Of a stretch of DNA of 44,808 nucleotides, positions 7,861-29,548 are shown in pieces. Every line of letters begins with the position of its first letter. The first letter of the stretch is position 1. Below the pieces are notes generated by a model, which did not search any database, was not told the DNA's origin, and was given only the letters and a program-made list of their open reading frames with translations. Origin of the DNA: Oscillibacter sp. (GTDB lineage Bacteria; Bacillota; Clostridia; Oscillospirales; Oscillospiraceae); the NCBI GenBank assembly GCA_022795445.1, contig JAAWGR010000016.1, forward strand, positions 1-44,808, given 5' to 3'. Both the position numbers and the translations under genes were made by a program.

Positions 7861-7893
7861 TACAATAAAGATAGTCGACAAAAGACTGTCGAT
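7861..7893 (+). promoter_or_regulatory. Operator A: -10 box plus tandem GTCGAY operator
   Basis: A -10-like TACAAT (7861-7866) is followed after 7 bp by GTCGAC (7874-7879), 8 bp, then GTCGAT (7888-7893). The geometry and 19 of 24 operator bases are the same as at operator C (25602-25621). A matching -35 at 17 bp is not visible; TTGACT lies at 22 bp. The box is the likely target of the FadR-type regulator at 28886. It is placed where bound protein would block transcription start towards the ATC-hydrolase/Opp genes. Confidence 0.65.
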
Positions 7894-7929
7894 TATTTAC
7901 AGGAGGAAGAAATTGGCACCTGAAAAGGC

Positions 7930-7957
7930 TTGACGGGCAAATCAGTTATGGTACAAT
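7930..7957 (+). promoter_or_regulatory. Second promoter before the ATC-hydrolase/Opp operon
   Basis: -35 TTGACG (7930-7935), 16-bp spacer, -10 TACAAT (7952-7957), downstream of operator A and 143 bp before the first gene. Confidence 0.55.
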
Positions 7958-8100
7958 AGGCAAAATGCACAGAGCAAAGCCTAATGTACCGGTAGGTAAC
8001 GATAAAGCGGATGAAGTATGCTTGCTTCCACGGAGCAAGATACAAAAATGGCTGGCATCCTCAATAGCGGCGACACGATCAGAAAGGAATGAAGGAAACG

Positions 8101-8709
8101 ATGGAAAAGAAAACTCAAACCCATGCGGCCGAAGAAACAGCAAGCTTTCAGAAGGACAAGTATGTAAAGGAAGTGCCTGATTTTAAAATGGATGACAGCA
8201 AGAGCGATGTTGCCATCATGAAGGACTTCTATACGCTGATCTATGGCTTTATTGCACAGCGTGTGATCGACTCTTTCGGCCCAGAGGGGGAACAGGTGGT
8301 CAGAAGAGCGCTGCGTGATTTTGGCAAGATTCGCGGCACCGCACAGCGGGAAAGGCAGCTTCACTATGGGCTGGAACTGAACATGCAGAATTTACATGTT
8401 TACGCAGACCTCCCCGGCGACGATGATCAGGAGACAAACCGGCAGGTGTTCGAGAAGGATTGCTTCTATTCCGACTTGACAGAATGCGATATGTATGAGC
8501 TTTGGAAGAAGTATGACCTGATGGATGCCGCAGTCGTATATTGCGAGGAGATCCATCATGCCATGTGGACTGCGTATCATGAAGACACCGTTGTCGTTCA
8601 AGATAAAATTCTTACGAGAGGAGATGACCGATGCACATTTCTGTGTAAAATGCCCAATTACCAGAAAAAGATTAACCTAAAGCGCTACAAAGAAGGAAAA
8701 AAGTATTGA
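8101..8709 (+). CDS. L-2-amino-thiazoline-4-carboxylic acid (ATC) hydrolase family protein
   Basis: A 202-residue soluble protein. The stretch 'AQRVIDSFGPEGEQVVRRALRDFGKIRG' is typical of the ATC-hydrolase family (ring opening of 2-amino-thiazoline-4-carboxylate towards N-carbamoyl-cysteine in the cysteine route of pseudomonads). The second half, 'FYSDLTECDMYELWKKYDLMDAAVVYCEEIHHAMWTAY', also fits. Most clostridial members are uncharacterised and may hydrolyse other cyclic or carbamoylated amino acids. I chose ATG 8101 (GAAGGAA 4 bp upstream) over ATG 8089, whose AAAGGA abuts the codon. It is the first gene of the peptide-transport block, so a role in handling an imported amino-acid derivative is inferred. 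Confidence 0.7.
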   Translation: MEKKTQTHAAEETASFQKDKYVKEVPDFKMDDSKSDVAIMKDFYTLIYGFIAQRVIDSFGPEGEQVVRRALRDFGKIRGTAQRERQLHYGLELNMQNLHVYADLPGDDDQETNRQVFEKDCFYSDLTECDMYELWKKYDLMDAAVVYCEEIHHAMWTAYHEDTVVVQDKILTRGDDRCTFLCKMPNYQKKINLKRYKEGKKY

Positions 8710-8861
8710 TTTCCGCAAAGTGAGACCGTAATCCGGCGGCAGTAAATCGTTGAAGGATATGGAAGGACATATAACCACGTGGACCGGCGCAATGGTTGTC
8801 TGCCAGAAAACAGTGTACCCATAGGTATCCTAAAAGAATGAATGTAAAGGAAGAGGAATAT

Positions 8862-10439
8862 ATGAAAAGATTTGTTGCGCTGATTCTTGCGCTTGTTATG
8901 GCCGCCGGCGTGTTGGCCGGCTGTAGCAGTAACAATACAGAGGGGACTTCGGGGAATTCCGGCGGCAGTAACACCGGCGAAAAGACGCTGATCATGAGAA
9001 CAGACACGGCTTTCACATCTCTTGACCCTGCGAATAGTAATAATACCCACGACATTAAACTGTACGACCAGATTTATGAGGGCCTGTATGGCATGGATGA
9101 GGCTCACGGCGGCTATTATAACGAACTGGCGGAGGACGTGCAGGTCAGCGATGATTCTTTGGTGTACACCGTTACCTTAAAGGATGGCGTGACCTTCCAG
9201 AACGGCGAACCCCTGACTGCTTCTGACTGTGTTTTCACGTATGAAAGAGCATTTGAGAATGCCAACATGAACTATCTGACCTCAATGATCGATAGCGTGG
9301 AGGCTCCTGATGACAAGACCTTCGTCATCAATATGAAGTATGCCTACGCTCCTGTGGCGCACACGTTGTTCCGCATTAAAATCGTGGAAGAGGGCGAAGT
9401 CACGGAACAGGGTGATAAGTTTGGCACCATCCCCAATACCGCTGGTACTGGCGCTTACTGTGTGTCCGAGTACGATGTTGCTACTGGCTGCAAGCTGACT
9501 GCGTATGATGGTTATTGGCAGGGCGCTCCTGACATCAAGAATGTCGAGTATAGAGTGTTTGCTGATTCCGCTGCTGCTGTGATTGCCTATGAAAACGGCG
9601 AGCTGGATTATTATGAGGAAGCGGCGCTCTCCGATTGGGATTCCCTCTATGCCAAGGCTGGCGACGCCCACAGCGCTATGGTCAAGGGCAACAACGTGAT
9701 CTGGATGGGCATTAACTATGCCAGTAATGCCAACTCCGTTTTGAACGACGATTTGGTGCGCCAAGCGATGTTCTATGCCATCAATAAGGATGATATCAAC
9801 GTGGCCGTGACGGAAGGCTATGGAAGCCCGATGGATACCTACATGGTGCCTGAGTATTGTCCGACTCAGCCCACTTCCGGCTTTGAAAACTATGCCTATA
9901 ACTTTGAGAAGGCAAAGGAATTGCTGGCCCAGGCTGGCTATGCTGACGGCGTGAACGTCGGCACGATTCTGACGACTACCGCAGCCCACAGTGCCAAGGC
10001 AGCTCAGGTCATTCAGGCCAACCTTGACGCGGTAGGCATTCACGCAGAAGTGGAGTCTCTGGATGTGTCCATGGCTGTCGAGAGATGGAATGCACAGGAT
10101 TATGATATCTGCGTATACGGCGATTCCGGTAACTACGATTTCAACAATATTCGCCAGCAAGTCCACAGTGAGTCCGTCGGTATGTATGTAATCAACTATA
10201 CCATTGGCGACAAGTTCAACTGGCAGCGTATTGAGGAGCTGGTTGCTTTGGGCGCTGGCACGGCTGATAACGAAGAGCGTATGACTTACTACACCGAGCT
10301 GTGGTCTATGATTATGGATACCACCACGATCCTGCCTCTGATCAACAGGCCTGTGGCCGTTGTATGGTCGGACAGAATTGACATTGGCGATCCTGTTCCG
10401 ACGTACTACAAGATCAGAAATTTCAGCTGGGTTGGTTAA
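8862..10439 (+). CDS. Peptide ABC transporter substrate-binding lipoprotein (SBP family 5)
   Basis: A 525-residue extracellular lipoprotein that captures peptides for the ABC transporter encoded next. Signal sequence MKRFVALILALVMAAG, lipobox LAGC with Cys21, then a Ser/Gly/Asn linker. The body carries family-5 (OppA/DppA) signatures: 'SLDPANSNNTHDIKLYDQIYEGL' near residue 50, 'VYTVTLKDGVTFQNGEPLTASD' near 110, and 'LVRQAMFYAINKDDI' near 300. The ORF is open upstream to 8796, but the signal peptide and AGAGGA site fix ATG 8862. A large stem-loop lies between it and the permease gene, as is common where the binding protein is made in excess. Substrate specificity is not readable. Confidence 0.93.
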   Translation: MKRFVALILALVMAAGVLAGCSSNNTEGTSGNSGGSNTGEKTLIMRTDTAFTSLDPANSNNTHDIKLYDQIYEGLYGMDEAHGGYYNELAEDVQVSDDSLVYTVTLKDGVTFQNGEPLTASDCVFTYERAFENANMNYLTSMIDSVEAPDDKTFVINMKYAYAPVAHTLFRIKIVEEGEVTEQGDKFGTIPNTAGTGAYCVSEYDVATGCKLTAYDGYWQGAPDIKNVEYRVFADSAAAVIAYENGELDYYEEAALSDWDSLYAKAGDAHSAMVKGNNVIWMGINYASNANSVLNDDLVRQAMFYAINKDDINVAVTEGYGSPMDTYMVPEYCPTQPTSGFENYAYNFEKAKELLAQAGYADGVNVGTILTTTAAHSAKAAQVIQANLDAVGIHAEVESLDVSMAVERWNAQDYDICVYGDSGNYDFNNIRQQVHSESVGMYVINYTIGDKFNWQRIEELVALGAGTADNEERMTYYTELWSMIMDTTTILPLINRPVAVVWSDRIDIGDPVPTYYKIRNFSWVG

Positions 10440-10530: not shown

Positions 10531-11472
10531 GTGTATAGGTATGTGATGAAACGTATTCTATTCCTGATTCCGACAATACTTGGCGTTATTTTTATCATTT
10601 ATTTTGTCTTGAATCTGACGCCGGGAAATCCGGGCAGGTCAATTTTGGGTGTTTCGGCGCCTCAGGAGGCGGTAGATCAGCTGAATGAGGAACTGGGCTA
10701 TAACGACCCACTGATTGTCAAATACTATAAATATATCAAAAGTCTTGTTGTTGATCACAGCTTTGGAACGTCTTACTTCACGAAGCAGTCCGTGATGGAC
10801 GAAGTGCTGCCGCGTTTCTGGGTGACGCTGAAATTGGCTATAATCGGCATTGTCATTTCCACACTGATTGGCGTACCGCTGGGAATACTTACAGCTGTCA
10901 AGCAATACTCCGTATGGGATTACCTCCCCTCTATGATTGCCTTTTTGCTGGCGGCGGTTCCCGCGTTCGTGTTAGGTATGGCACTGCTGTTAATATTCTC
11001 ACTGAAGCTGAACATTTTGCCGTCTTATGGCTTGGACTCGTGGGAATGTTATATCATGCCGTCCCTTTGTATGGCAATCCCCATTACGGCATTCAATGTC
11101 CGTTTTACAAAGTCCTCCATGCTGGAGTCCATCCGTGCGGATTATATCGATACCGCCCGGGCCAAGGGCGCCAAGGAAAAAACGGTGATTTGGAAACATG
11201 CTTTGAAGAACGCGCTTCTTCCGGTTGTGACCAATATCGGTCTGAACATGGGCGGCCTGATCATGGGCGCTGTTGTTGCGGAACGGCTTTTCTCAGTGCC
11301 GGGGATTGGCGCTTTGATCGTTGACAGAATCAACTATAGGGACGAGCCTGTCATTATTGCATGTACAATTGTTATTGCCATTACCTTCACAATTATCATG
11401 CTTATCGTCGATATTGTATATGCGTTCATTGATCCCCGGATCAAGGCGAAGTATACACGCGTTAAGGGATAA
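10531..11472 (+). CDS. Peptide ABC transporter permease (DppB/OppB type)
   Basis: A 313-residue inner-membrane permease with six hydrophobic segments. The N-terminus 'MKRILFLIPTILGVIFIIYFVLNLTPGNP' is typical of the B-subunit. The EAA loop that contacts the ATPases is visible as 'DYIDTARAKGAKEKTVIWKHALKNALLPVVT' around residues 206-236. The start is GTG 10531 with AAAGGAG 8 bp upstream; the in-frame ATG six codons later is an alternative. It forms the membrane channel with the following C-subunit. Confidence 0.92.
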   Translation: MYRYVMKRILFLIPTILGVIFIIYFVLNLTPGNPGRSILGVSAPQEAVDQLNEELGYNDPLIVKYYKYIKSLVVDHSFGTSYFTKQSVMDEVLPRFWVTLKLAIIGIVISTLIGVPLGILTAVKQYSVWDYLPSMIAFLLAAVPAFVLGMALLLIFSLKLNILPSYGLDSWECYIMPSLCMAIPITAFNVRFTKSSMLESIRADYIDTARAKGAKEKTVIWKHALKNALLPVVTNIGLNMGGLIMGAVVAERLFSVPGIGALIVDRINYRDEPVIIACTIVIAITFTIIMLIVDIVYAFIDPRIKAKYTRVKG

Positions 11473-11482
11473 GGAGGTTTGC

Positions 11483-12385
11483 ATGTCTGAAAATGGAACA
11501 ACCGCTGCCCCTGTGCCGCAGGAACACCTGGAATTCAAGCGGCAGAACCAGTTTAAAGAAGTTTGGAGACGTTTTCGCAAAAACAAAGGCTCCATGGTCG
11601 GTTTGATCCTGCTGGTGATCATTGCGCTGCTGCTGATTTGTGTGCCGTTTCTGGTGGATTATGAGGACGCGATCACCATGAACATGTCCATGAAACTGGC
11701 AAAGCCCTCTGCTGAGCACTGGTTTGGCCTGGACTCTTATGGACGTGACTTGCTCGCCCGTGTTCTCTACGGCGGCAGGACCTCCATTGGCATTGCGGTT
11801 CTGGCAACATTGTCCGCCTGCGTCGTTGGCAGTACGCTGGGCGCCGTCGCCGGTTATTTTGGCTGCATGGTGGACAGTATCATCATGCGTGCGTTGGACA
11901 TCTTTATGTCTGTCCCAGATATTCTTTTCACCATGGCAGTTGTATTTGCACTGGGAGCAAATTTTGTGAACCTGCTGATTGCACTGACACTGGCGTATTT
12001 TACGAACTATGTGCGTCTGGTTCGTTCGCAGATTCTGAGCCTTTCGGAACTGGAGTATGTGGAAGCGGCACGAGCAGGCGGTTCCAGCAGCGCACGGATC
12101 ATCTTGTCTCATATTTTCCCGAATGCCATCGGCGTGATCATCGTCAATACGACGCTGAACGTGGCAAAGATCATCCTGTATGAGTCCACATTGGGCTTTC
12201 TGGGTCTCGGCATGCCGTCGCCTGCACCGGAATGGGGGCAGATTATTTCGGATGCCCGCGAGTATATGCGCACAGCGCCCCATATGCTGCTGTTCCCTGC
12301 GCTGGCGATTGTGATTACAGCATGTTCCGTAAACCTTGTGGGCGATGGACTGCGCGACGCATTGGACCCGCATCTGAAGTCATAA
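11483..12385 (+). CDS. Peptide ABC transporter permease (DppC/OppC type)
   Basis: A 300-residue permease with the C-subunit features: N-terminal 'EVWRRFRKNKGSMVGLILL', the 'HWFGLDSYGRDLLARVLYGGRTS' block near residue 75, and the EAA loop 'EYVEAARAGGSSSARIILSHIFPNAIG'. The C-terminus 'ACSVNLVGDGLRDALDPHLKS' is also characteristic. The frame is open upstream, but AAGGAGG 6 bp before ATG 11483, just after the DppB stop, sets the start. Partner of the B-subunit. Confidence 0.93.
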   Translation: MSENGTTAAPVPQEHLEFKRQNQFKEVWRRFRKNKGSMVGLILLVIIALLLICVPFLVDYEDAITMNMSMKLAKPSAEHWFGLDSYGRDLLARVLYGGRTSIGIAVLATLSACVVGSTLGAVAGYFGCMVDSIIMRALDIFMSVPDILFTMAVVFALGANFVNLLIALTLAYFTNYVRLVRSQILSLSELEYVEAARAGGSSSARIILSHIFPNAIGVIIVNTTLNVAKIILYESTLGFLGLGMPSPAPEWGQIISDAREYMRTAPHMLLFPALAIVITACSVNLVGDGLRDALDPHLKS

Positions 12386-12421
12386 CAGTCGTTTGATACA
12401 TATTTACTGAAAGGAAAAGAC

Positions 12422-13426
12422 ATGAGCGAAAATACGATTCTGAATATCAAAGACCTTTCTGTTATCTATAAGACTGATCTTGAAACAGTGGAAGCAGTCA
12501 ATGGGATCAACATTGCCATCAAACGGAAAAGCACGTTTGGGCTTGTGGGTGAGACTGGCGCCGGCAAGACCACCACCGCAAGATCGATCATTCGCCTTCT
12601 TCCGGCAGTGGGACATGTTACAGGCGGCAGCATCGAGTTTGAGGGGAAGAACCTGCGGGAGCTGTCTGAGGAGGAAATGCGCCAATACCGCGGCGAGAAG
12701 ATTGCTATGGTATTCCAGGATCCTATGACAAGCCTGAACCCCGTGATGTCCGTAGGCGACCAGATTGCCGAGACCATCAAGATACACAACCCGGAACTGT
12801 CGAAAGAAGAAGTTGAGCAGCGCGTAGAATCCACACTGGCTATGGTGGGGATTCTGCCGTCCAGAAAGATAGACTATCCCCACCAGTTTTCCGGCGGCAT
12901 GAAGCAGCGCGTGATTATTGCAATTGCGCTGGCCTGCGAGCCGGATCTGCTGATTGCCGACGAGCCGACCACAGCGCTGGATGTGACCATTCAGGCGCAG
13001 GTGCTGATGATGATCAAAGATCTGCGGGAACGTCTCGGCACCTCCATGCTGATGATCACCCATGATCTGGGCATTGTTGCCAAGATTTGTGATGATGTGG
13101 GCGTCATGTACGCCGGCAAGATCGTGGAGTCCGGGACCGTGCAGGATATCTTTGAAGGCAAGAACCATCATCCCTATACAGAGGGGTTGTTTGGATCGAT
13201 TCCCGATCTGAAGTCCAAAGCAAAACGGCTCAATGCCATTCCCGGCTTGATGCCTGACCCCACCAACTTGCCAAAGGGCTGCGCATTTGCTGAGCGCTGC
13301 AAGTATGCAAAGGATATTTGCTTCCAGGAACAGCCCAAGATTTCCGTATCAGGTACACACAAGCTTTGCTGCCATCGTTTTGATGAGAACGGCAATAAAA
13401 AGGAGGAGAACAATGGCCAATCATGA
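12422..13426 (+). CDS. Peptide ABC transporter ATP-binding protein (DppD/OppD type)
   Basis: A 334-residue cytoplasmic ATPase. Walker A GETGAGKT is at residues 43-50, Q-loop '[15 protein letters not shown]', signature FSGGMKQR, Walker B '[12 protein letters not shown]', switch His in 'MITHDLG'. The C-terminal Cys-containing extension ('[16 protein letters not shown]') is the OppD/OppF hallmark. AAAGGAAAAG precedes the ATG. The gene overlaps the next ATPase gene by 14 bp, so the two subunits are coupled in translation. Confidence 0.95.
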
Positions 13427-14381
13427 TACAGAACCATTGCTTCAACTCAAGGATCTGAAAACCTATTTCAAGCTCAATGGCGGTGCGATGCTTCACGCGG
13501 TGGATGGTATCAATCTTGATATTTACGAGGGCGAGACCATTGGCGTTGTGGGTGAGTCCGGCTGTGGAAAGTCCACGCTGGGAAGAAGTATCCTGCGCTT
13601 GATCGAGCCCACCTCCGGCCAGATCATTTACAAGGGGGAGGATGTAACCAAAATCAGTCAGCGGAAATTCAGACCGCTGCGTCAGGATCTACAGATCATC
13701 TTCCAAGATCCCTATGCGAGCATCGATCCCCGCAAATCCGTGATCGAGGTGATTGCGGAATATATGCTGATCCATAAAACATACAAGCGCCGTGCGGATA
13801 TCTATAACCGGGCTGCGGAGCTGATGGATCTTGTGGGCTTGGCTAGGCGGTATGCGAACATGTATCCTCATGAGTTGGATGGCGGCCGCCGTCAACGTAT
13901 CGGCATTGCCAGAGCGTTGTCTCTGAGGCCTAAGTTCATCGTGTGCGACGAGCCTGTCTCGGCACTGGATGTTTCGATTCAGGCCCAAATCCTGAATCTG
14001 TTGATGGATTTGGGTGATGAGCTGGGGCTGACCTATTTGTTTATTACCCATGATTTGAGCGTGGTCAAGCATATTTCTGACCGTATCATGGTTATGTATC
14101 TAGGACAAGCAGTAGAGATCGCTCCTTCGGAAGAACTGTTCAACAATCCGCTTCATCCTTATACACAGGCATTGCTGGCCGCGATTCCGGAGCCGGATCT
14201 CTCGAAACGAGATATCCCCTTCAAGACGATCAAGGGAGAGGTCAGCAGTCCCATCAACGTCAAGCCCGGATGTAGATTCTGCAAACGCTGTGAATATACC
14301 AAGCCGGAGTGTGAGGGAACGAATAAGCCGTTGAATGAAGTATTGCCTGGCCACTTTGTGGCGTGCGAGCTGCATAAATAG
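13413..14381 (+). CDS. Peptide ABC transporter ATP-binding protein (DppF/OppF type)
   Basis: A 322-residue second ATPase of the transporter. Walker A GESGCGKS is at residues 47-54, Q-loop '[13 protein letters not shown]', Walker B '[12 protein letters not shown]', His switch 'ITHDLSVV', and the C-terminal '[15 protein letters not shown]' cysteine cluster. The signature is LDGGRRQR instead of LSGGQRQR, a variant I believe occurs in other clostridial OppF proteins. The true start is ATG 13413 behind AAGGAGGAG; the longer frame lies inside dppD. A terminator-like hairpin follows. Confidence 0.94.
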
Positions 14382-14407
14382 CAGGCAGGTTTCTGCAATG
14401 AAAAAAT

Positions 14408-14450
14408 GAGATCCAGAAAATCAGTAAAATGATGACTGGGTCTCGTTTTT
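14408..14450 (+). terminator. Probable (leaky) terminator after the Opp genes
   Basis: GAGATCCAG (14408-14416) pairs with CTGGGTCTC (14436-14444, one G-U) and is followed by GTTTTT. No separate promoter is evident before the next gene, so read-through into pepD is likely. Confidence 0.6.
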
Positions 14451-14478
14451 GCAATTTTTATATGTGCAGGAGGTATAT

Positions 14479-19050: not shown

Positions 19051-19248
19051 TTATTCAACATAGATGGCAAAATCAGGACACATTCTCTCACACTTCTTGC
19101 ATGCAACGCAATCCTCTTGACGGGTGGCGGCAGCATAATTGTATCCTTTTTTATTTACGAGGTGTGTGATTTCAAACACGTTTTTAGGGCACAGGCTGAC
19201 GCACATTGCGCAGCTCTTGCATAGCTCTTTGTCAATAAATACTGCCAT
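19051..19248 (-). CDS. korD: 2[4Fe-4S] ferredoxin-type subunit (KorD-like)
   Basis: A 65-residue protein with two CxxCxxCxxxCP motifs, beginning at residues 10 and 47. In 2-oxoacid:ferredoxin oxidoreductases of four-subunit type, such a delta subunit carries electrons from the TPP site to external ferredoxin. It starts 5 bp after sucD and precedes the aminotransferase, separated from korABC by sucCD, an uncommon gene order. Assignment as the Kor delta subunit comes from context. Confidence 0.88.
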   Translation of the reverse strand: MAVFIDKELCKSCAMCVSLCPKNVFEITHLVNKKGYNYAAATRQEDCVACKKCERMCPDFAIYVE

Positions 19249-20132: not shown

Positions 20133-20135
20133 CAC

Positions 20136-21837: not shown

Positions 21838-21852
21838 AGTTGACTTCCTCCC

Positions 21853-22665
21853 TTATAACGGCATATTGGTTCCTTCATAGACCGGTTTATCGACGCAAAT
21901 GAACTGACCCAGCGGCAGTTTTCCTTCCTTCTCGGCCTCGCTCATTTTATCGCCCTGCTCCTTCATGTAGGTGTTCGCCTGAATATATTCCATCACCTTG
22001 ACGGGGTCGCCTGTTTTAAGCGCATAACGGCCGTAATGGGTAGGGCACTGAGAGACAATCTCAATGAGGGAGAAACCCTTGTGCTGCAATGCGCGCTCCA
22101 TGGCCTTTTTGCATAGAAGAGGCTGCGCGGTGGTCCAGCGTTCCACATGGGTAGCGCCGGCGGCGATGGCCAGAGAGCATACATCGAAACGGGGCTCGCC
22201 GCTGCCATAGGGGGTCGTCATGGTTTTGGACTCCTCGGGAGTCGTGGGGGCAACCTGCCCGCCGGTCATGGCAAAGTTCATGTTATTGACCATCACCACG
22301 GTTACATCCAAATTACGGCGGCAGGACTGGATCATATGGTTGCCGCCGATGGAAACCAAGTCGCCGTCACCGGCAAAAATGACAACGGGCAGATCTGGCT
22401 GCATCATTTTCACGCCGGTAGCCCATGCCAGCGTTCTGCCGTGAACGCCGTGGAACATGTCGGTCTTCAGGTAAATCGGGATGCGGGCCGTGCAGCCGAC
22501 GCCGCCGATGTGCAGCATCTGCTCAGGGTCCATATGAAGCGCATCCAGCGCCTGGGTATAGTAGTTCAGCACCTGACCGCAGCCGCAGCCCGCGCAAAAG
22601 AAGTGCGGGAGCTTTTCTTTCCGGAGAAACTTGCGCAAAGGGTTGATTTTCAGTTCGTCTGCCAT
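21853..22665 (-). CDS. korB: 2-oxoacid:ferredoxin oxidoreductase, beta (TPP) subunit
   Basis: A 270-residue TPP-binding subunit. It shows 'FFCAGCGCGQVLNYY' near residue 23, 'HIGGVGCTARIPIYL' near 52, and the TPP/Mg motif starting GDGD in 'IFAGDGDLVSIGGNH' with Asn in 'MVNNMNFAMTGGQ'. The true start is ATG 22665, preceded by AGGAGG and one base past the korA stop; the longer frame runs back inside korA. The 'TGGQVAPTTPE' block is common to 2-oxoglutarate and branched-chain 2-oxoacid members, so substrate cannot be fixed from it. Confidence 0.94.
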   Translation of the reverse strand: MADELKINPLRKFLRKEKLPHFFCAGCGCGQVLNYYTQALDALHMDPEQMLHIGGVGCTARIPIYLKTDMFHGVHGRTLAWATGVKMMQPDLPVVIFAGDGDLVSIGGNHMIQSCRRNLDVTVVMVNNMNFAMTGGQVAPTTPEESKTMTTPYGSGEPRFDVCSLAIAAGATHVERWTTAQPLLCKKAMERALQHKGFSLIEIVSQCPTHYGRYALKTGDPVKVMEYIQANTYMKEQGDKMSEAEKEGKLPLGQFICVDKPVYEGTNMPL

Positions 22666-22666
22666 T

Positions 22667-23836
22667 TTATTTGACCTCCTCCTGAATCTCCCGCAAAATC
22701 TCTGCGGAAGTGTGGATCTGTCCCCGGTTCTTCGTAATAGGGACGACGGGACATTTGCCGTTGACGACTCTTGTGATCTCATTGACATAGCGGCCCATGT
22801 TCATCTCCACAGCAAAGACCTTAGAGACGTTAACAGCTGTCTCGCGGATGATCTTTTCGGGAACGGGCCAGATGTTACAAAGCTTCAGAACGCCGACTTT
22901 GATGCCGGATTCCCGTGCCATCTGCATAGCCTCAATGGCAGGCCGCACCTCGCTGCCGTAGGTGATGATGGCATAGTCAGCGTCATCCAGCATGTAACGC
23001 TCCGTGCGGCAGATTTCATCGGCGTTGTCGCGGATTTTGCCGCAGACACGGCGGTAGAGCCGCTCAAAATCATCAGGGTCCCAATCGATGCCGCCTTTTT
23101 CATTGTGAGGGTTCAGAGAATAGATGGTGTGGTATCCCTTACCCAGCGGAGCAAAATCAGGGCAGCCGGCGGCCGGCGCGCCGAAGGGCAGGTAGTCGTC
23201 GGGGGAGGCGGAGGTATAAGCACGGTTGAACAATTCGATCTGATCCGCAGCGGGAATCTCCAGACGCTCACGCATCAGGGCGATGGTAGCCTCGGACATG
23301 ACGATGACAGGATTGCGGTATTTTTCAGCCAGATTAAAGGCCCAGATTGTGTAGTCGTACAGTTCCTGTACAGAGGAGGGGCAGACAACGATGGCTTCGT
23401 AGTCGCCGCTGCATCCATAGCGCAGCTGATAGACGTCGGCATAGGTGGCAAAGTTATCACCTCTGGTACGCATAACGTCAGCAACGACGACCGGCGCTTC
23501 AATTGTGTAGCAATAGCCCAGGCCTTCCTGCATATAATTGAAACCCGCGCTGGCTGTAGCCGTCATGACTTTGCCGCCGGCAAGAGACGCGCCGGCCAGG
23601 GCGAAGATGGAGCAAAGTTCATCTTCACCCTGTACAAATTTACCGCCTACCTGTGGCAGTCTTTGAGACATCCGCTCAGAGATTTCGTTTGCAGGAGTGA
23701 TCGGATAGCCGGCGAAAAAGTTGCAGCCGGCGCTGATTGCGCCTTCTACTAACGCATAGTTCCCCAGCATGAAGTGGACGCCCGTATCCACGCGTTTTTC
23801 CCATGCTTTAAGCTGGTTTGCCCGAATCGTTGCCAT
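22667..23836 (-). CDS. korA: 2-oxoacid:ferredoxin oxidoreductase, alpha subunit
   Basis: A 389-residue alpha subunit with the N-terminal 'MLGNYALVEGAISAGCNFFAGYPITPANEI' block, 'VMTATASAGFNYMQEGLGYC' in the middle and the C-terminal domain II ('YAIITYGSEVRPAIEA', 'IWPVPEKIIRE'). It heads the operon korA-korB-korC-sucC-sucD-korD-aminotransferase. I place the start at ATG 23836 (AAAGGA 9 bp upstream); the frame open to 23971 runs through the promoter. Together the operon suits transamination, oxidative decarboxylation and substrate-level ATP formation, e.g. glutamate to 2-oxoglutarate to succinate. Confidence 0.94.
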   Translation of the reverse strand: MATIRANQLKAWEKRVDTGVHFMLGNYALVEGAISAGCNFFAGYPITPANEISERMSQRLPQVGGKFVQGEDELCSIFALAGASLAGGKVMTATASAGFNYMQEGLGYCYTIEAPVVVADVMRTRGDNFATYADVYQLRYGCSGDYEAIVVCPSSVQELYDYTIWAFNLAEKYRNPVIVMSEATIALMRERLEIPAADQIELFNRAYTSASPDDYLPFGAPAAGCPDFAPLGKGYHTIYSLNPHNEKGGIDWDPDDFERLYRRVCGKIRDNADEICRTERYMLDDADYAIITYGSEVRPAIEAMQMARESGIKVGVLKLCNIWPVPEKIIRETAVNVSKVFAVEMNMGRYVNEITRVVNGKCPVVPITKNRGQIHTSAEILREIQEEVK

Positions 23837-23910
23837 GTCATCGTTCCTTTCCTGTTCCAAAATGTGTGGCTTGTATATTGCGCAAGAGCGAGAGAAGCGA
23901 ACGCCATATT

Positions 23911-23930
23911 GTCGACAATATACAAGAGAC
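23911..23930 (-). promoter_or_regulatory. Operator B in the kor operon leader
   Basis: On the minus strand, six bases after the -10, reads GTCTCT, 8 bp, GTCGAC. The inner box lies in the perfect palindrome TATTGTCGACAATA (23907-23920). Spacing equals operators A and C; the first box is degenerate (GTC only). Likely bound by the FadR-type regulator at 28886. Confidence 0.65.
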
Positions 23931-23936
23931 AAATCA

Positions 23937-23965
23937 TATATAACCGAAAATGGCACAAATGTCAA
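23937..23965 (-). promoter_or_regulatory. Promoter of the kor-suc operon
   Basis: Minus strand: -35 TTGACA (23960-23965), 17 bp, -10 TATATA (23937-23942), followed by operator B and a roughly 75-bp leader to korA. Confidence 0.75.
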
Positions 23966-24028: not shown

Positions 24029-25552
24029 TCAATTGCATACCTTTACCTCGCCCAGCACCCATACATGATGAATGCCGACAGGGGGGAGCGTAGGCTCAAT
24101 ATACGAATTGGCGTTGTTGATCATAGCGGGATCAAAAAGCACAAGATCGGCATCCAATCCTTCTCGAATCAAGCCGCGATCCCAAAGCCGAAGCCGGCGT
24201 GCCGGTTCAGAAGTGATGTGCCGGATGGCCTCTTCCAGCGGCATAACTTTTTCATCGCGGACATAATGACCCAGGAAGCGGGGGAAAGAGGCATAAGCCC
24301 GGGGATGAGGGTGGGCGCCTACGATACCATCGGTGCAGACGCAGTGGATGTCGTTCTTCATGACATAAATGACATCCTCTTCCGAAATGGAGAAGTAAAT
24401 GGCGATGACCTCCGGTCCCTCATGCTGTAAGATATGGAGGACGGCGCGGCCTACGTCCATGCCCAGCTTCTCACTGATCGCGTCCATCTTCAGGCCGGCC
24501 ATCCACGCATATTCCTCCGTGGCCACAGAGGCCAGCATGATGCACTGGGCGCCGCCGCGGGCCTCGATCTCGTCGCGGGTCTCTTTTAAGATCTGTTCAT
24601 AAACGGCGGGCTCCTTCAGCCGGTTCTGGAAGCCCTGCTCACCGCCGTCATAAGCCCACTGGGGAACGCATACCTTCAGGCCGGTGCAGGCGGCCGTCCA
24701 TGGGTACTGGTCAATGGTCACATCGTAGCCTTTTTCCCGCATGGCATAGATCGAGGCAACCGATTGATGAACTTTGCCCCAGTTGCGGGGACCCAGCGCC
24801 TTATGATGGGAAATCTGTAGGCGTACGCCGCTGTTTTCCACCACCGCCCGCATCTCATCCACGGCCTCCAGCAGCTTGTCCTTTTCACTGCGCATATGTA
24901 CCATGATCAAACCGTCATAAGCGGCCACCACTTTGGCCAGCTCAATCAGCTCATCTGTTTTGGCAAAACTTCCCGGAGGATAAATCAGGCCCAAAGACAT
25001 GCCTTTTGCGCCTTCTTCCATACAGTTTGCCAGTAAATCCTTCATTGCCTGAAGTTCTGCGGCGGTGGGCTCACGGTTGTCGTTGCCCATGACATTCATA
25101 CGAATGGTGCCATGGCCTACGAGGCTGACAAAACGGGCGGCTGGCTTCATTTCTTCAACGACGCTCATATAATCGGAGAAACTGCGCCATGTGTACGGAC
25201 CGGGAATCGTACCAGCCAACGGCGCCATATTGTCCGCCAACTCCTTTACGAGGTCATCCGTTAACGGAGCCACAGAGGAACCGTCCTGTCCCAATACTTC
25301 TGTTGTAATGCCCTGCTCGACAACCTGACACAGCCGGGGGTCCCGAAGGATCTCCAATTCCATATGGCTGTGCGTATTGATAAAGCCCGGAGACAACGCA
25401 AAGCCGTTTGCATCAATGACCTCATAGGTATCTGCCGGCGGAATACGGCCGATCCGGGCAATCTTTGTACCGCGGATAAGAACATCCGAAGAAAAAGGTT
25501 TTGCCCCAGTGCCATCGTAAACAAGTGCATTTTTAATTAAAGTTTCTTTCAT
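24029..25552 (-). CDS. N-acyl-D-amino-acid deacylase (D-aminoacylase)
   Basis: A 507-residue member of the amidohydrolase superfamily that hydrolyses N-acyl-D-amino acids to a carboxylate plus D-amino acid. Visible: the N-terminal beta-sandwich ('LIKNALVYDGTGAKPF'), metal motif GFINTHSHME (His61, His63), 'EQGITTEVLGQDGSS', 'LVGHGTIRMNVMG', 'MSLGLIYPPGSF', 'VHMRSEKDKLLEAV' and 'LQISHHKALG', all characteristic of D-aminoacylases. The length is normal. AAAGGAGG lies 8 bp upstream. It is divergent from the M20 peptidase gene and shares operator C with it. Some family members act on N-acyl-D-glutamate, some on dipeptides with a D-residue; the specificity is not readable. Confidence 0.9.
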   Translation of the reverse strand: MKETLIKNALVYDGTGAKPFSSDVLIRGTKIARIGRIPPADTYEVIDANGFALSPGFINTHSHMELEILRDPRLCQVVEQGITTEVLGQDGSSVAPLTDDLVKELADNMAPLAGTIPGPYTWRSFSDYMSVVEEMKPAARFVSLVGHGTIRMNVMGNDNREPTAAELQAMKDLLANCMEEGAKGMSLGLIYPPGSFAKTDELIELAKVVAAYDGLIMVHMRSEKDKLLEAVDEMRAVVENSGVRLQISHHKALGPRNWGKVHQSVASIYAMREKGYDVTIDQYPWTAACTGLKVCVPQWAYDGGEQGFQNRLKEPAVYEQILKETRDEIEARGGAQCIMLASVATEEYAWMAGLKMDAISEKLGMDVGRAVLHILQHEGPEVIAIYFSISEEDVIYVMKNDIHCVCTDGIVGAHPHPRAYASFPRFLGHYVRDEKVMPLEEAIRHITSEPARRLRLWDRGLIREGLDADLVLFDPAMINNANSYIEPTLPPVGIHHVWVLGEVKVCN

Positions 25553-25565: not shown

Positions 25566-25594
25566 TTTACTTTTTAAAAAGAATATGGTATAAT
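25566..25594 (+). promoter_or_regulatory. Promoter of the M20 peptidase-racemase operon
   Basis: -35 TTTACT (25566-25571), 17 bp, extended -10 TGG-TATAAT (25589-25594), 7 bp before operator C. Confidence 0.7.
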
Positions 25595-25601
25595 AAAAAC
25601 A

Positions 25602-25621
25602 GTCGATAAAATACAGTCGAC
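25602..25621. promoter_or_regulatory. Operator C shared by two divergent promoters
   Basis: GTCGAT (25602-25607), 8 bp, GTCGAC (25616-25621). It lies between the -10 boxes of the two divergent promoters and downstream of both, so one bound repressor could block both. It matches operator A in 19 of 24 positions, including the distance to the plus-strand -10. Confidence 0.7.
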
Positions 25622-25634
25622 AATTTGTAACCAT

Positions 25635-25663
25635 AGAATAACACTCCCACACGCTAAAGTCAA
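25635..25663 (-). promoter_or_regulatory. Promoter of the D-aminoacylase gene
   Basis: Minus strand: -35 TTGACT (25658-25663), 17 bp, -10 TATTCT (25635-25640). Operator C lies 13 bp downstream of the -10. Confidence 0.65.
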
Positions 25664-25717: not shown

Positions 25718-26869
25718 ATGTTAGATGAAACCTCCGAATGCTTTTTGCTGCTGAAGAAACTGGTATCTTATCCGTCCACAGATGGGAATGAGGCGGGGAT
25801 CAGCGATTTTCTGGCGGAAAACGCACGGGCAATGGGAATGGATATTGTTGAGCAGCAGGAAGCGCTGCCTGGTCTGAAAAATGTGATTGCCCGCAAGACC
25901 TTTGGCCGCGGCGGGAAAACGGTTGTGCTGAATTCTCACATGGATGTTGTGCCGCCGGCGGACGGCTGGGATACCGACCCGTATGATCTTGTGATCAAGG
26001 GCACCCGCGCTTACGGCCGTGGTTCTACGGATGCCAAGGGTCCGCTGGCCTGCTTGACGATGGCAGTCAAGCGGATCATTGAAAATCCGGAAGGCGTTAA
26101 CGGCGCCATTGTTTACACAGCGGTGGTAGATGAGGAGAGCCATTCCACCGGCGCCCGCAAGTTAGTGACGCATCCGTTGGTGCGGGGGGATTATTGCATT
26201 GTAGGGGAGCCTACTCTTTCCCGGGTTGCGGTGGCGCACAACGGCAGCCTCCGCCCTGTGATTGTGATTGAAGGATTAGCTGCCCATGCCTCGAATCCAG
26301 AGTTTGGGATCAGTGCGGTTCGGATTGCGGCGTATGTTTCCCAATTGGTGGATGAGATTGCTGAGGAGCTGACCCATGTGGTGAATCCTACCACAGGAAA
26401 ACCATCCATCGCTATTACGATGATCTCCGGCGGTGTGCAGGAGAATGTGCTGCCGGATCATTGTGAACTGACGATTGACCGCCGTATGGTGCCAGGTGAG
26501 AAGGAAGAGGAACTGCGGGAGCGGTTTGACCGCCTGTGCCGTCAGGCGCAGGAAAAGTTCCCCGGGAGCCGCGTATATGTGGACCGCTATCTGGTAACTA
26601 CAGGGCCCTCTGCGGAAACAGCGGCAGATACGGAACTTGTCCGAACGGCGTTTGAGGCGGCGGAAAAGGTAACGGGTGAAAAACAGACGCCTTTTGGCTT
26701 AACCTGTAACACTGATATGAACCATTTTACCCGTGCCGGTATTCCCACCATTATTATCGGACCAGGCACGATCACAGTAGCGCACAAGCCGAACGAGTAT
26801 GTGGAATTATCTCAGCTGGAGAGCGCCTGCGCAGTAGACGAAGCGGTGATCCGTGCGCTGCTGAAATGA
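25718..26869 (+). CDS. M20 family metallopeptidase/deacylase (ArgE/DapE-like)
   Basis: A 383-residue zinc hydrolase. Metal and catalytic motifs are 'LNSHMDVVPPADGW' near residue 76, 'GRGSTDAKGPLA' near 107, 'VVDEESHSTGARKL' near 142 and the C-terminal 'IGPGTITVAHKPNEYV'. M20 enzymes of this type deacylate N-acyl amino acids or cleave short peptides; the exact substrate is open. ATG 25718 is preceded by GAAAGGGG; a TTG at 25688 is an unlikely alternative. First gene of the unit with the racemase-like protein (26 bp downstream), opposite the D-aminoacylase, so both strands of the divergent pair encode deacylase-type enzymes. Confidence 0.88.
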   Translation: MLDETSECFLLLKKLVSYPSTDGNEAGISDFLAENARAMGMDIVEQQEALPGLKNVIARKTFGRGGKTVVLNSHMDVVPPADGWDTDPYDLVIKGTRAYGRGSTDAKGPLACLTMAVKRIIENPEGVNGAIVYTAVVDEESHSTGARKLVTHPLVRGDYCIVGEPTLSRVAVAHNGSLRPVIVIEGLAAHASNPEFGISAVRIAAYVSQLVDEIAEELTHVVNPTTGKPSIAITMISGGVQENVLPDHCELTIDRRMVPGEKEEELRERFDRLCRQAQEKFPGSRVYVDRYLVTTGPSAETAADTELVRTAFEAAEKVTGEKQTPFGLTCNTDMNHFTRAGIPTIIIGPGTITVAHKPNEYVELSQLESACAVDEAVIRALLK

Positions 26870-26895
26870 GAGCAGCTGGGAAAAGGAGGTGCACT

Positions 26896-28047
26896 ATGTC
26901 TTATACGCTCGAAGAGGCCAGCAGCGTTTTGACAGTAGACCTGGGAAAGGTAAAACGTAATATTGAACGGATTCGCGCCCATATCGGTTCCAATGTGGAT
27001 ATCATGTATACGGCAAAGTCCAACGGGTATGGCCATGGCCTGATTGAACCGACTCTGTACATGCGTGACCATTGTGGTATTCATTGCTTTGCTACAGGAC
27101 AGCTTTGTGAGGCAGTGGAGCTTCGGCAGGCGGGCGTCAAGGATTTTATTCTCGTGATGGGAGGCATTCCCTATTCCGGGATACCCTCCTTTGTAAAAAA
27201 CGATTTTGCGGCTACCGTCTATGAAGACACCATTCCCCGTGCGCTGAATGAAGAAGCAGCGCTTCAGGGGAAAAAGGTGCGTGTTCATATTAAGATCGAT
27301 ACTGGTCTGCGCCGGTTTGGCGTGCAGGCCGGAGAGCAGTTGGCGCATTTAATAGAAACGCTTCAGGCATTGCCGCATCTGGAAATCGACGGCGTGTATA
27401 CGCATCTTGCCAATGGGTATTCTCTGGATAAATCTTTTACCCATCAGCAGATGGCAGAGTTTGAAAAAGCTCTGACGCAGCTGAAGGAAGCGGGGATCCG
27501 GCCGCGTCTGGTACACGCCGCTAATACGGCCGCCTGTGTGGCGTCACCGGAGTGTTATTATGACGTTGTGCGGGTAGCGGCGCTGATTTTCGGTTATGAC
27601 ATTTCACCCGGCATCAAGAACCGGTTAGGGCTGGAGCCGTCGATGCGCTGGACCAGCAGGATTCTCAATGTGCTGTGGGCGGAAGAAGGGGAGAACGTCA
27701 GTTATTACCGTTTCTTTGTGCCGAAACGCCGCACCAAGGTTGCGATCATCGGCTTTGGCATGGGAGACGGCTATGTGCGCAATCTGGTCACGCGGGATAC
27801 TGCGCACAATGCGGATGTGCTGATCCACGGAAAACGTGCCCGCCTGCTGGATCTGAACGTGGATGTGGCATTTGCGGATGTGACGGATATTCCGGATGTG
27901 AAGATTGGCGACACGGCTGTTTTGGTGGGACAGGATGGTGACGAGGAGATCACCACCATGGAACTCGGCGAACTGGGCGGTACATCCAACGGCCATGTCT
28001 GCTGTGCCATTACATCCCGCCCGCTGCGCCAATATATCAACGGCTGA
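26896..28047 (+). CDS. Alanine-racemase-fold PLP protein lacking the catalytic tyrosines
   Basis: A 383-residue fold-type III PLP protein with the two-domain layout of alanine racemase. The PLP lysine motif is 'AKSNGYGHG' (Lys41, Tyr45), the Arg site 'IDTGLRRFGV' is kept, and 'GVYTHLANGYS' is present. In my hand alignment with Geobacillus Alr, the GYADG loop carrying catalytic Tyr265 reads GMGDG (Met289), and the ISYRVPR block carrying inner-gate Tyr354 reads ITSRPLR (Ser374). Both active-site tyrosines are thus missing, so ordinary alanine racemisation is doubtful; one-base racemisation, another substrate, or lyase/isomerase chemistry are options. AAAGGAGG precedes ATG 26896. It is cotranscribed with the M20 enzyme and faces the D-aminoacylase, so D-amino acid use is the likely context. 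Confidence 0.82.
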   Translation: MSYTLEEASSVLTVDLGKVKRNIERIRAHIGSNVDIMYTAKSNGYGHGLIEPTLYMRDHCGIHCFATGQLCEAVELRQAGVKDFILVMGGIPYSGIPSFVKNDFAATVYEDTIPRALNEEAALQGKKVRVHIKIDTGLRRFGVQAGEQLAHLIETLQALPHLEIDGVYTHLANGYSLDKSFTHQQMAEFEKALTQLKEAGIRPRLVHAANTAACVASPECYYDVVRVAALIFGYDISPGIKNRLGLEPSMRWTSRILNVLWAEEGENVSYYRFFVPKRRTKVAIIGFGMGDGYVRNLVTRDTAHNADVLIHGKRARLLDLNVDVAFADVTDIPDVKIGDTAVLVGQDGDEEITTMELGELGGTSNGHVCCAITSRPLRQYING

Positions 28048-28088
28048 CGGCCTACGGCCGTTGCAGAGCGATAAGAGTGGATAATGTT

Positions 28089-28772
28089 ATGAATTTGCTG
28101 CACCGCTATTTTATGAAACTGATTCGTATGCTTCTGGGCTTTGCTTTGATTGCAATTGCCATCGTTATTGCAAAGCAGTCCTTTTGCCTTGCGCCGTGGA
28201 ATGTCCTGAACGACGGTATTTCCTATACATGTTCTGTGACCATGGGGACAGCCAACATCATTGCCGGTTCCCTGATCCTCTTGCTGGATTTAATCCTCCG
28301 GGAGACGTTTGGCGTCGGGATGGTGCTCAATATTTGGCTGATCGGCATGTTTACCGATGTGTTTATGGCGCTTAATGCGCGTCTTTCGCTGCTGCCGCGT
28401 ATTGAAGAGATTCCTTTGCAGATTGTCTTTTGCTTTCTGGCGCTGATCATAAATGCTTTCGGCATTTACTTCTATATGTCTGCCAGAATGGGGGCGGGAC
28501 CGCGGGATACGCTGGTGGTGTTTCTGACGAAACATCTTCCGTTTCCGGTAGGCCTCTGTAAATTGCTGTTGGAAGCGGTCGTTTGCCTGACAGGATGGTT
28601 TTTCGGCGGTGAAGTAGGCGTGGGAACGTTTCTTTTTGTCCTGTGCGGCGGACCGATTTTGCAGTTCGTTTTCCGCCTGTTCCGCTTTGATGTAAAGGCT
28701 GTTAAAAACGAGTCCATTCTGGATACTTGGAGAATTGTAACGCACCGTCAGACGCTTCCTGAGAGGCAGTAA
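28089..28772 (+). CDS. YczE/YyaS/YitT-type integral membrane protein
   Basis: A protein of about 227 residues with five to six membrane helices. 'LGFALIAIAIVIAKQSFCLAPWNVLNDGISY' and 'MSARMGAGPRDTLVVFLTKHLPFPVGLCKLLLE' are typical of the YczE family, whose function is not known. ATG 28089 or GTG 28077 could be the start; neither has a strong ribosome site. It lies about 40 bp after the racemase-like gene, in the same direction, so it may be a transporter or helper of that pathway. Confidence 0.75.
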   Translation: MNLLHRYFMKLIRMLLGFALIAIAIVIAKQSFCLAPWNVLNDGISYTCSVTMGTANIIAGSLILLLDLILRETFGVGMVLNIWLIGMFTDVFMALNARLSLLPRIEEIPLQIVFCFLALIINAFGIYFYMSARMGAGPRDTLVVFLTKHLPFPVGLCKLLLEAVVCLTGWFFGGEVGVGTFLFVLCGGPILQFVFRLFRFDVKAVKNESILDTWRIVTHRQTLPERQ

Positions 28773-28799
28773 AAGTTCGGGATATTTCAAATGGAGCGG

Positions 28800-28828
28800 T
28801 TGACAAATGCTTTGTTTCACATTATGAT
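28800..28828 (+). promoter_or_regulatory. Promoter of the GntR regulator gene
   Basis: -35 TTGACA (28800-28805), 17 bp, -10 TATGAT (28823-28828). No GTCGAY box is present here, so autoregulation through that motif is not indicated. Confidence 0.75.
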
Positions 28829-28885
28829 AGTGAATAAAGAAAATGTATTTTAGTATTTTTTACACAAAAGGCAGGAAAATAAATC

Positions 28886-29548
28886 ATGTATCAAAGTCAA
28901 GATTTAGGCAGCCAGCCGTCTTTAAAACAATTGGTCTATGAAAATTTGCAAAACAAAATCATACTAGGCGAATTGGCTCCTGGAACGAAATTAACGGAAG
29001 AAGAGCTGGCCCAGTCAATGAATATCAGCCGAGCGCCGATCCGTGAGGCATTGAATATGCTTGAGCGGGACGGTTTTACCAAGATCATCACCCGCAAGGG
29101 GGCAGTGGTGGCGGAGATGACCCGGAAGGATGCCATCGACATTTGGACGTGCCGCATTGCTTTGGAGCCTTTTGCGGCCAGAGAGGCGCTGCCCAATATC
29201 CCACCCCAGGATATCCAGACGGCGCTGGAGCATATTGAGACGCTGGAAAAGAATGCCTATACCTTTGATGATTATGTGGCGTCTGACTTGGAAGTCCATG
29301 GGCTGTACTACAATAACCTGGTCAACGAATACATGAAGTCCATTTTGAATAACCTGAAGGCGCATTCTGTCCGTGTCCGTTGGACCAAGGAGGTCAAACA
29401 CAAAAATTCCGACCAGTCCCAGATATCGATCAGGGAGCACCGGAAGATACTGGAGGCGCTGCAAAGCAACGACCCAGATGCTGTGTTTAATGTGGTGAAA
29501 GAGCATATTGAGAAAAGTGCGGAGCGTTTGTTTGACGCACTGGACTGA
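28886..29548 (+). CDS. GntR family (FadR/FCD-type) transcriptional regulator
   Basis: A 220-residue DNA-binding regulator. The N-terminal winged helix (residues about 12-75) includes 'GELAPGTKLTEEELAQSMNISRAPIREALNMLERDGF', the classic GntR helix-turn-helix. The C-terminal all-helical FCD domain shows the metal/effector positions Asp and His in 'DLEVHGLYYNNLVN' and His in 'REHRKILEAL' and 'VVKEHIEKSAERL'. FCD regulators usually bind carboxylate effectors such as amino or keto acids. The FadR-type operator consensus fits TTGTCGACAA found in front of the surrounding operons, so I infer this protein controls them. AGGCAGGAAA precedes the ATG. Confidence 0.93.
   Translation: MYQSQDLGSQPSLKQLVYENLQNKIILGELAPGTKLTEEELAQSMNISRAPIREALNMLERDGFTKIITRKGAVVAEMTRKDAIDIWTCRIALEPFAAREALPNIPPQDIQTALEHIETLEKNAYTFDDYVASDLEVHGLYYNNLVNEYMKSILNNLKAHSVRVRWTKEVKHKNSDQSQISIREHRKILEALQSNDPDAVFNVVKEHIEKSAERLFDALD

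What the first reader, a model, noticed from the sequence alone, without database searches (positions are those of the whole stretch)
7861..29548. A shared tandem operator (GTCGAY-N8-GTCGAY) defines a 21-kb peptide/acyl-D-amino-acid regulon next to a FadR-type GntR gene
Seen: GTCGAC-N8-GTCGAT at 7874-7893, GTCGAT-N8-GTCGAC at 25602-25621, and, read on the minus strand, GTCTCT-N8-GTCGAC at 23930-23911. In the first two the -10 (TACAAT, TATAAT) is exactly 7 bp upstream and 19 of 24 operator bases agree; in the third it is 6 bp. Known: FadR/VanR-type GntR proteins bind palindromes of the type nyGTM-N0-1-KACrn, which TTGTCGACAA satisfies. A gene of exactly that class (28886-29548) closes the block. 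Every operon in between (ATC-hydrolase/Opp/PepD/amidohydrolase; kor/sucCD/aminotransferase; D-aminoacylase; M20/racemase-like/YczE) starts at one of these sites. Inferred: one regulator coordinates import, deacylation, stereo-conversion and ATP-yielding oxidation of an N-acyl or D-amino-acid-containing peptide. I know of no description of this combined system.
Basis: partly seen in the sequence, partly recalled or inferred. Interest (0 to 1): 0.85.

Follow-up and report, generated by a model that had tools for sequence, protein, structure and literature searches.

The report
Shared promoter switch in peptide-catabolism island
A species-specific block of peptide and amino-acid breakdown genes in an unnamed bacterial genome carries the same short DNA control box at three of its promoter regions, most likely the binding site of the regulator encoded at its end, which is a neat but ordinary kind of local gene switch.

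Summary
The shared operator is real, but part of its description needs correcting. Sites A (7874) and B (25602) are the only exact GTCGAY-N8-GTCGAY copies in the 3.24-Mb assembly. They agree at 31 of 41 bases; 0 of 2000 simulations reach that. The better unit is a 14-bp box, GTCGAYWAWWKACA, twice in direct repeat at A and B. A matrix trained on A and B alone ranks a box at 23911 (site C) 2nd of 89,590 window positions. Nothing in 399 kb of the same genome reaches the weakest of the five boxes. Site C is one box; its reported partner GTCTCT is unsupported.

The boxes lie 5-12 bp past the -10s of opp, kor/suc and the divergent D-aminoacylase-like/M20 pair. The nearby FCD-type GntR is the best candidate repressor, by proximity and family consensus only: its own promoter lacks a box, the genome has ten GntR-like matches, and no orthologous loci were found for footprinting. 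The block looks like an accessory island. 'D-amino-acid' metabolism is uncertain: the racemase-like protein lacks the catalytic tyrosine. Ordinary in kind: a new local regulon.

The parts
7861..7866 (+). -10-like TACAAT of promoter A; no matching -35 found by the scan
   Evidence: sequence; promoter scan does not list it; gap to box 7 bp
7874..7887 (+). operator A, box 1 GTCGACAAAAGACT
7888..7901 (+). operator A, box 2 GTCGATTATTTACA
7930..7957 (+). second promoter-like site for the opp operon (TTGACG-16-TACAAT, extended -10), downstream of operator A
8089..8709 (+). ATC hydrolase-family protein (PF14196), first gene of operon A
8796..10439 (+). peptide/nickel-type ABC substrate-binding protein (ORF from a TTG; actual start probably further in)
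   Evidence: matches below curated cut-offs
10531..14381 (+). OppB, OppC, OppD, OppF-like ABC transporter genes
   Evidence: matches below curated cut-offs of the individual subfamilies
14449..15942 (+). PepD-type aminoacyl-histidine / non-specific dipeptidase (TIGR01893, above cut-off)
15953..17578 (+). amidohydrolase, no close family assigned
   Evidence: weak partial hits only
17829..19013 (-). aspartate-type aminotransferase, last gene of kor operon
   Evidence: matches below curated cut-offs
19051..19248 (-). small 2x[4Fe-4S] ferredoxin-like ORF (65 aa), probable KorD
   Evidence: read by eye from the sequence; not run against a library
19254..21257 (-). sucD (19254-20135, above cut-off of NF004230) and sucC (20136-21257, below cut-off), ADP-forming CoA ligase subunits
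21277..23839 (-). korC, korB (below cut-offs) and korA (above cut-off of NF006412), 2-oxoacid:ferredoxin oxidoreductase
   Evidence: korA start at 23839 used
23911..23924 (+). operator C, single box GTCGACAATATACA (contains most of the palindrome TTGTCGACAA at 23909-23918)
23937..23965 (-). kor promoter, TTGACA-17-TATATA
   Evidence: sequence; not listed by the scan, which demands T at the end of the -10
24029..25552 (-). N-acyl-D-amino-acid deacylase-like amidohydrolase
25566..25594 (+). M20 promoter TTTACT-17-TATAAT, extended -10
25602..25615 (+). operator B, box 1 GTCGATAAAATACA
25616..25629 (+). operator B, box 2 GTCGACAATTTGTA
25635..25663 (-). promoter of the D-aminoacylase-like gene, TTGACT-17-TATTCT, extended -10
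25718..26869 (+). M20 ArgE/DapE-family deacylase (TIGR01910, above cut-off)
   Evidence: start codon read
26866..28047 (+). alanine/serine racemase-like protein, catalytic Tyr replaced by Met
28077..28772 (+). YczE-like membrane protein (below cut-off)
28886..29548 (+). GntR-family regulator with FCD domain (PF00392 + PF07729), candidate binder of the boxes; own promoter TTGACA-17-TATGAT (28800-28828) has no box

Best explanation
The block is a lineage-specific accessory island for peptide / N-acyl-amino-acid catabolism with its own local transcription switch. The operator is a 14-bp box, GTCGAYWAWWKACA, in two direct copies at promoter A (opp) and at the divergent promoter region B (D-aminoacylase-like / M20), and in one copy at promoter C (kor/suc). 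Shown: the boxes, their specificity to this block within what was searched, and their position 5-12 bp downstream of the -10 elements, where a bound protein would sit at or just past the transcription start. Inferred: the binder is the FCD-type GntR protein encoded at the block's end; it acts as a repressor released by a small carboxylic or amino-acid-like ligand; at B one 28-bp operator shuts both divergent promoters. Also inferred: released dipeptides or amino acids are transaminated, and the 2-oxoacids are oxidised by Kor to acyl-CoA, with ATP made by the SucCD-type ligase.
For: Only two exact tandem sites in the assembly, both here. 31/41 identity between them, 0 of 2000 simulations as good. 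Cross-validated matrix: trained on A alone it ranks box B1 1st (tie), C 3rd and B2 11th of 89,590; trained on B alone it ranks C 2nd, A2 4th and A1 11th. No position >=15 among 797,844 in 399 kb of the same genome, while the five boxes score 15.5-18.1. Of the 18 intergenic regions over 60 bp in my gene map, GTCGAC occurs in exactly three, the three of this block; 1 of 20,000 simulations has it in all three, though the word was chosen after seeing it. Geometry: gaps to the -10 of 7, 7 and 5 bp at A, B+ and B-; at B the operator fills the space between the two predicted start points. The other three TTGTCGACAA copies in the genome lie inside predicted ORFs. The GntR protein passes Pfam's cut-offs for both domains, and its family binds TKGT/ACMA palindromes with 2-3-nt gaps; weaker extra boxes 7-12 nt from the centre are reported for many groups (PMC4494728).
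Against: No binding or expression data. No box at the gntR promoter (best 8.4), although self-regulation is common in such families (recalled). The direct-repeat reading is not the typical palindrome of the family. Nine other GntR-like matches in the genome, and a YheO-type regulator nearby, could bind instead. No orthologous loci were found to test conservation. Promoter A lacks a -35 and has a better-scoring promoter downstream. Site C lies further from its -10 (12 bp) and is single. A naive test finds that 13 of 3000 simulated triples share some 8-mer with at least four G or C, and 221 of 3000 share any 8-mer. The plain pattern with two mismatches is not enriched.
Confidence: 0.55

Rival explanations
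1. The boxes are real and shared, but another protein binds them: another GntR paralogue, the YheO-type regulator at 35866-36543, or an unlinked factor.
For: The genome holds 10 matches to the GntR protein at E<=1e-3, itself included. A YheO-type regulator (PF08348+PF13309) lies about 6 kb away. gntR itself has no box.
Against: The YheO gene sits between two copies of a different motif, unique in the assembly (TTTTAGTGAA..TCTTCYAACA at 31883 and 36730; pattern made from the two sites), which suits it better by position. No box reaches score 15 outside this block in what was scanned (399 kb).
Confidence: 0.33
2. Spo0A boxes: GTCGA is most of the core read by Spo0A (TGTCGAA).
For: PMC3485338 (passages seen) gives the core TGTCGAA with contacts at G2, C4 and G5. 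A and B contain GTCGA in tandem.
Against: 0 of 5 boxes is TGTCGAA: the base after GTCGA is C or T in all five, and three of five are preceded by A. The shared AAWW-KACA extension and the 14-bp period are not part of that core. 102 perfect core 0A boxes are reported for C. difficile 630, whereas no box scoring 15 or more occurs in the 399-kb sample. Presence of spo0A in this genome was not tested.
Confidence: 0.04
3. The tandem works in the RNA as a 5'-terminal hairpin that stabilises or attenuates the transcript.
For: As RNA, A folds at -11.9 kcal/mol (0 of 200 shuffles as good) and B at -7.3 (4 of 200), both starting near the predicted +1. A is also flagged terminator-like on both strands.
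Against: Two self-complementary GTCGAY boxes fold on each other automatically. C has no such hairpin (148 of 200 shuffles as good), and the opposite-strand transcript at B folds no better than shuffles (98 of 200). Similarity extends past the hairpin into the 14-bp repeat. No Rfam match at gathering threshold.
Confidence: 0.07
4. Chance similarity of A+T-rich promoter DNA.
For: At 2 mismatches the plain pattern is not enriched.
Against: 31/41 identity against 0 of 2000, and the cross-validated ranks.
Confidence: 0.03

Closest known systems
FadR-subfamily (FCD) GntR regulons, e.g. [quoted passage not shown]
   Same: FCD GntR gene beside catabolic operons; GT-N2-AC core; weaker extra boxes 7-12 nt from the palindrome centre are reported for 23 orthologous groups
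   Different: Here the unit is best described as a 14-bp direct repeat whose 3' half (AAWW-KACA) is shared; no box at the regulator's own promoter; no orthologue of the regulator found
NanR-type direct-repeat operators (TGGTATAW repeats; cited in PMC4494728)
   Same: a FadR-subfamily regulator that reads direct repeats
   Different: different box and period; number of repeats not compared
Peptide-fermenting 2-oxoacid:ferredoxin oxidoreductase plus ADP-forming CoA ligase pathways (recalled)
   Same: aminotransferase + Kor + SucCD-type ligase genes in one run
   Different: here tied by a shared operator to peptide import and deacylase genes

Membership tests
FadR-subfamily GntR transcription factor (FCD group) | N-terminal GntR winged helix plus C-terminal FCD domain | tested here: met
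   PF00392 65.9 bits and PF07729 75.2 bits, both above gathering score
FadR-subfamily GntR transcription factor (FCD group) | Asp and three His metal ligands of FCD (recalled) | tested here: inconclusive
   D-x3-H, REH and KEH motifs align with D/H, EH and RH of 7xp0; ligand roles are recalled, not tested
FadR-subfamily GntR operator | palindromic TKGT/ACMA boxes with 2-3 nt between GT and AC | tested here: inconclusive
   C contains a perfect TTGTCGACAA; A has TAGTCGACAA and CTGTCGATTA, B has CAGTCGATAA and CAGTCGACAA, so the left half is degenerate (consensus)
FadR-subfamily GntR operator | bound by the cognate GntR protein | not testable with these tools
   needs a gel shift or footprint
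Spo0A box | core TGTCGAA | tested here: not met
   0 of 5 boxes match (sequences; core)
Alanine racemase | catalytic Lys and Tyr of fold-type III PLP racemases (roles recalled) | tested here: not met
   Lys-containing AKSNGYGHG aligns, but the Tyr of GYADG aligns with Met (GMGDG) in the two alignments shown, 4ecl and 4y2w; yet the TIGR00492 score of 243.6 is above its cut-off of 168
D-aminoacylase | amidohydrolase metal ligands incl. bridging Cys (recalled) | tested here: inconclusive
   HxH, two further His and an Asp align; the Cys of GNCG is replaced by Asp (GQDG) against 9kb1; residue roles recalled

The most novel reading that the evidence does not exclude
An FCD-type GntR protein without close relatives reads a new operator architecture, tandem 14-bp direct repeats GTCGAYWAWWKACA placed at the transcription start. 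It thereby co-regulates, as one recently acquired unit, uptake, deacylation and ATP-yielding oxidation of an unusual N-acylated or D-residue-containing peptide.
Probability: 0.3. Interest if true: 0.5.

Novelty: new member of a known kind. Interest (0 to 1): 0.3.

Why it matters
If right, one 28-bp element predicts which genes of an accessory island act as one pathway and names the regulator to test. It also adds a possible direct-repeat operator to a family usually described as reading palindromes. The wider consequence is modest, because local GntR regulons of this kind are common.

Tried and rejected
Phylogenetic footprinting: not possible with what was found. The best GntR relative in 60 congeners is 34% identical; 0 of 399 other family genomes at E<=1e-25; two loci in the genome-contig scan, one 26% identical over most of the protein, one 41% over 59 residues; none in viral contigs; 2063 plasmid records, all under 60%, the five listed at 31-32%. 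D-aminoacylase relatives listed in the genus reach at most 40%, and 0 of 392 other class genomes reach E<=1e-120. KorA is in 1 of 86 genus genomes at E<=1e-100, the own one; ATC hydrolase at E<=1e-15 in 2 of 86, the other at 35%. Neighbourhoods of 12 relatives (L057-L068) show no similar block, only scattered weak relatives; two of them (L062, L064) hold both a D-aminoacylase and an amidohydrolase relative at 28-38%.

Misbinned contig: rejected for the left flank. The M29 peptidase is in 84 of 86 genus genomes (own included), at 68-84% identity in the others. M29 and the AI-2E transporter are together in 11 of 13 fetched congeners, none with the GntR, Kor or D-aminoacylase genes in the stretch taken; one (L082) has Opp relatives at 40-52% further along; two of the 13 stretches are under 9 kb. 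Tetranucleotide profiles of the block correlate 0.86-0.91 with other own contigs, which correlate 0.69-0.95 with each other. The right edge of the island was not tested genome-wide.

RNA element in the kor leader: fold no better than shuffles (144 of 200 as good); no Rfam family at gathering threshold in the window. No tRNA in the window.

Literature (open-licence PMC papers only): GTCGAC+GntR+operator+palindrom (2 papers, listing and start of abstracts seen, neither on this subject); D-aminoacylase/GntR/regulon/alanine racemase, any three (22 papers, 12 listings seen, none of the 12 holds the word D-aminoacylase); 'D-amino acid deacylase'+GntR (1 paper, unrelated by title); DauR/YheO/D-amino acid (57 papers, 10 listings seen, none useful).
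Full report
What was checked. The window is contig C60 of a 3.24-Mb, 151-contig, 92.89%-complete genome; no call names the organism. Allowing two mismatches, the pattern is not enriched, either in the window (10 found, 7.4 expected) or in the genome (187 forward and 154 reverse against 631 and 605 for the backwards control, a different word). So the claim rests on the exact sites and what surrounds them, not on the degenerate pattern.

Strength of the A-B pair. From the first base of the -10 to the end of the second box (41 bases) the two sites share 31. In 2000 first-order Markov simulations of the window's 18 intergenic regions over 60 bp the best match to A never exceeded 27. The 20-bp core alone is weaker: 4 of 2000 simulations reach 16/20. 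An extended 24-base pattern with one mismatch allowed occurs nowhere else in 400 family genomes, but that pattern was made from the two sites, and its backwards control matched three times in one genome.

A better description of the operator. Written in 14-bp steps, A is GTCGACAAAAGACT-GTCGATTATTTACA and B is GTCGATAAAATACA-GTCGACAATTTGTA. A matrix from these four boxes scores them 15.5 to 18.1. It also finds GTCGACAATATACA at 23911, on the + strand in the kor promoter region, at 18.0, second of 89,590 positions; the next unrelated window position scores 12.1. Training on A alone ranks B1 first (tied), C third and B2 eleventh. Training on B alone ranks C second, A2 fourth and A1 eleventh. In 20 stretches (399 kb) of the same genome the best of 797,844 positions is 14.5 and no tandem exceeds 20, against 32.4 and 33.7 for A and B and 22.6 at C. 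In eight further own stretches (56 kb) the best is 13.1, and in 25 loci (443 kb) of congeners it is 14.0. The three other perfect TTGTCGACAA copies of the genome lie inside predicted ORFs. Of the 18 intergenic regions, the three that contain GTCGAC are these three promoter regions; 1 of 20,000 simulations has it in all three, with the caveat that the word was chosen after the fact.

GTCTCT is not a box, and the position where a second + strand box should be ranks between 222nd and 964th with four training sets. C is one box. Less favourable tests of C: a 41-bp comparison to A and B is matched by 102 of 2000 simulations, and 13 of 3000 simulated promoter triples share some 8-mer with at least four G or C, 221 of 3000 any 8-mer.

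Anatomy. At B the + promoter (TTTACT-17-TATAAT) and the - promoter (TTGACT-17-TATTCT), both with extended -10, face each other, and the 28-bp operator lies 7 bp and 5 bp from their -10s. It therefore fills the space between the two predicted starts, the arrangement expected of a repressor acting on both. At A the box is 7 bp after a TACAAT that lacks a -35 by the scan; another promoter-like site follows at 7930-7957, so A could act as a roadblock for the first or an upstream site for the second. At C the kor promoter TTGACA-17-TATATA ends at 23937, and the single box ends at 23924, 12 bp further downstream. pepD, YczE and gntR have no box in front; gntR has a good promoter of its own, TTGACA-17-TATGAT.

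Which protein. The gene at 28886-29548 encodes a GntR/FCD protein. Its family's sites carry TKGT/ACMA with 2-3 bases between GT and AC, and in 23 orthologous groups a weaker extra box lies 7-12 nt from the centre (PMC4494728, sections 10 and 17 read). TTGTCGACAA with a neighbouring GTCGAT fits that picture, but so would many relatives of this protein, of which the genome has several (10 matches at E<=1e-3 including itself). A YheO-type regulator at 35866-36543 is better matched, by position only, with a second motif that flanks it. I put GntR as binder at about 0.55 to 0.6, and 'some protein binds these boxes' at about 0.9.

The block. NCBIfam and Pfam matches support an Opp-type importer, a PepD-type dipeptidase, an ArgE/DapE-family deacylase, a D-aminoacylase-like amidohydrolase, and a kor/sucCD/aminotransferase run with a small ferredoxin ORF read by eye. 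PepD, M20, KorA, SucD and the racemase-like protein pass a curated cut-off; SucC, KorB, KorC, the Opp proteins, the aminotransferase, YczE and GntR do not pass an NCBIfam one in the rows shown. Two cautions on 'D-amino acid': the racemase-like protein has Met where the catalytic Tyr aligns, and the D-aminoacylase-like protein has Asp in place of the bridging Cys (the roles of these residues are recalled). The substrate is therefore open.

Distribution. The block's genes that were tested are missing from relatives: KorA in 1 of 86 genus genomes, the own one, no GntR orthologue, D-aminoacylase relatives only up to 40%, ATC hydrolase in one other of 86 at 35%. The M29 peptidase gene on the left flank is in 84 of 86, with the AI-2E gene in 11 of 13 fetched relatives. 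The block is thus most simply an accessory island in a normal genus context; its right edge was not tested.

Verdict. As a kind of system it is ordinary: a local GntR-type regulon, possibly with an unusual direct-repeat operator.

Noticed in passing
31883-31905 (+) and 36730-36750 (-): A second shared promoter motif, TTTTAGTGAA-N0..4-TCTTCYAACA, stands before the indolepyruvate oxidoreductase/glutamate dehydrogenase operon and, inverted, before the aminotransferase/NhaC operon. These are the only two exact copies in the assembly (control 0; pattern made from the two sites). A YheO-type regulator gene lies between them.
   Followed up: partly
   Followed up: partly
26866-28047: Alanine-racemase-like protein with Met in place of the catalytic Tyr (GMGDG), beside an M20 deacylase; probably not a conventional racemase.
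   Followed up: partly
24029-25552: D-aminoacylase-like amidohydrolase with Asp (GQDG) where the bridging Cys (GNCG) of a solved relative aligns.
   Followed up: partly
23862-23880 and 23916-23934: 19-nt inverted repeat (84%) with 35 nt between the arms in the kor leader; it overlaps box C but the fold is no better than shuffles.
   Followed up: partly
7844-7867 and 7935-7958: Two 24-nt direct repeats (75%) that each end in TACAATA, i.e. a duplicated promoter stretch before the opp operon.
   Followed up: no
14390-14440: Hairpin followed by a T run between oppF and pepD, read by eye, suggesting partial termination before pepD.
   Followed up: no
L107:11684-11697: Weak single box (score 14.0) in a part of own contig C38 where no long ORF is evident (GTCGACAAAATTCT).
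   Followed up: no
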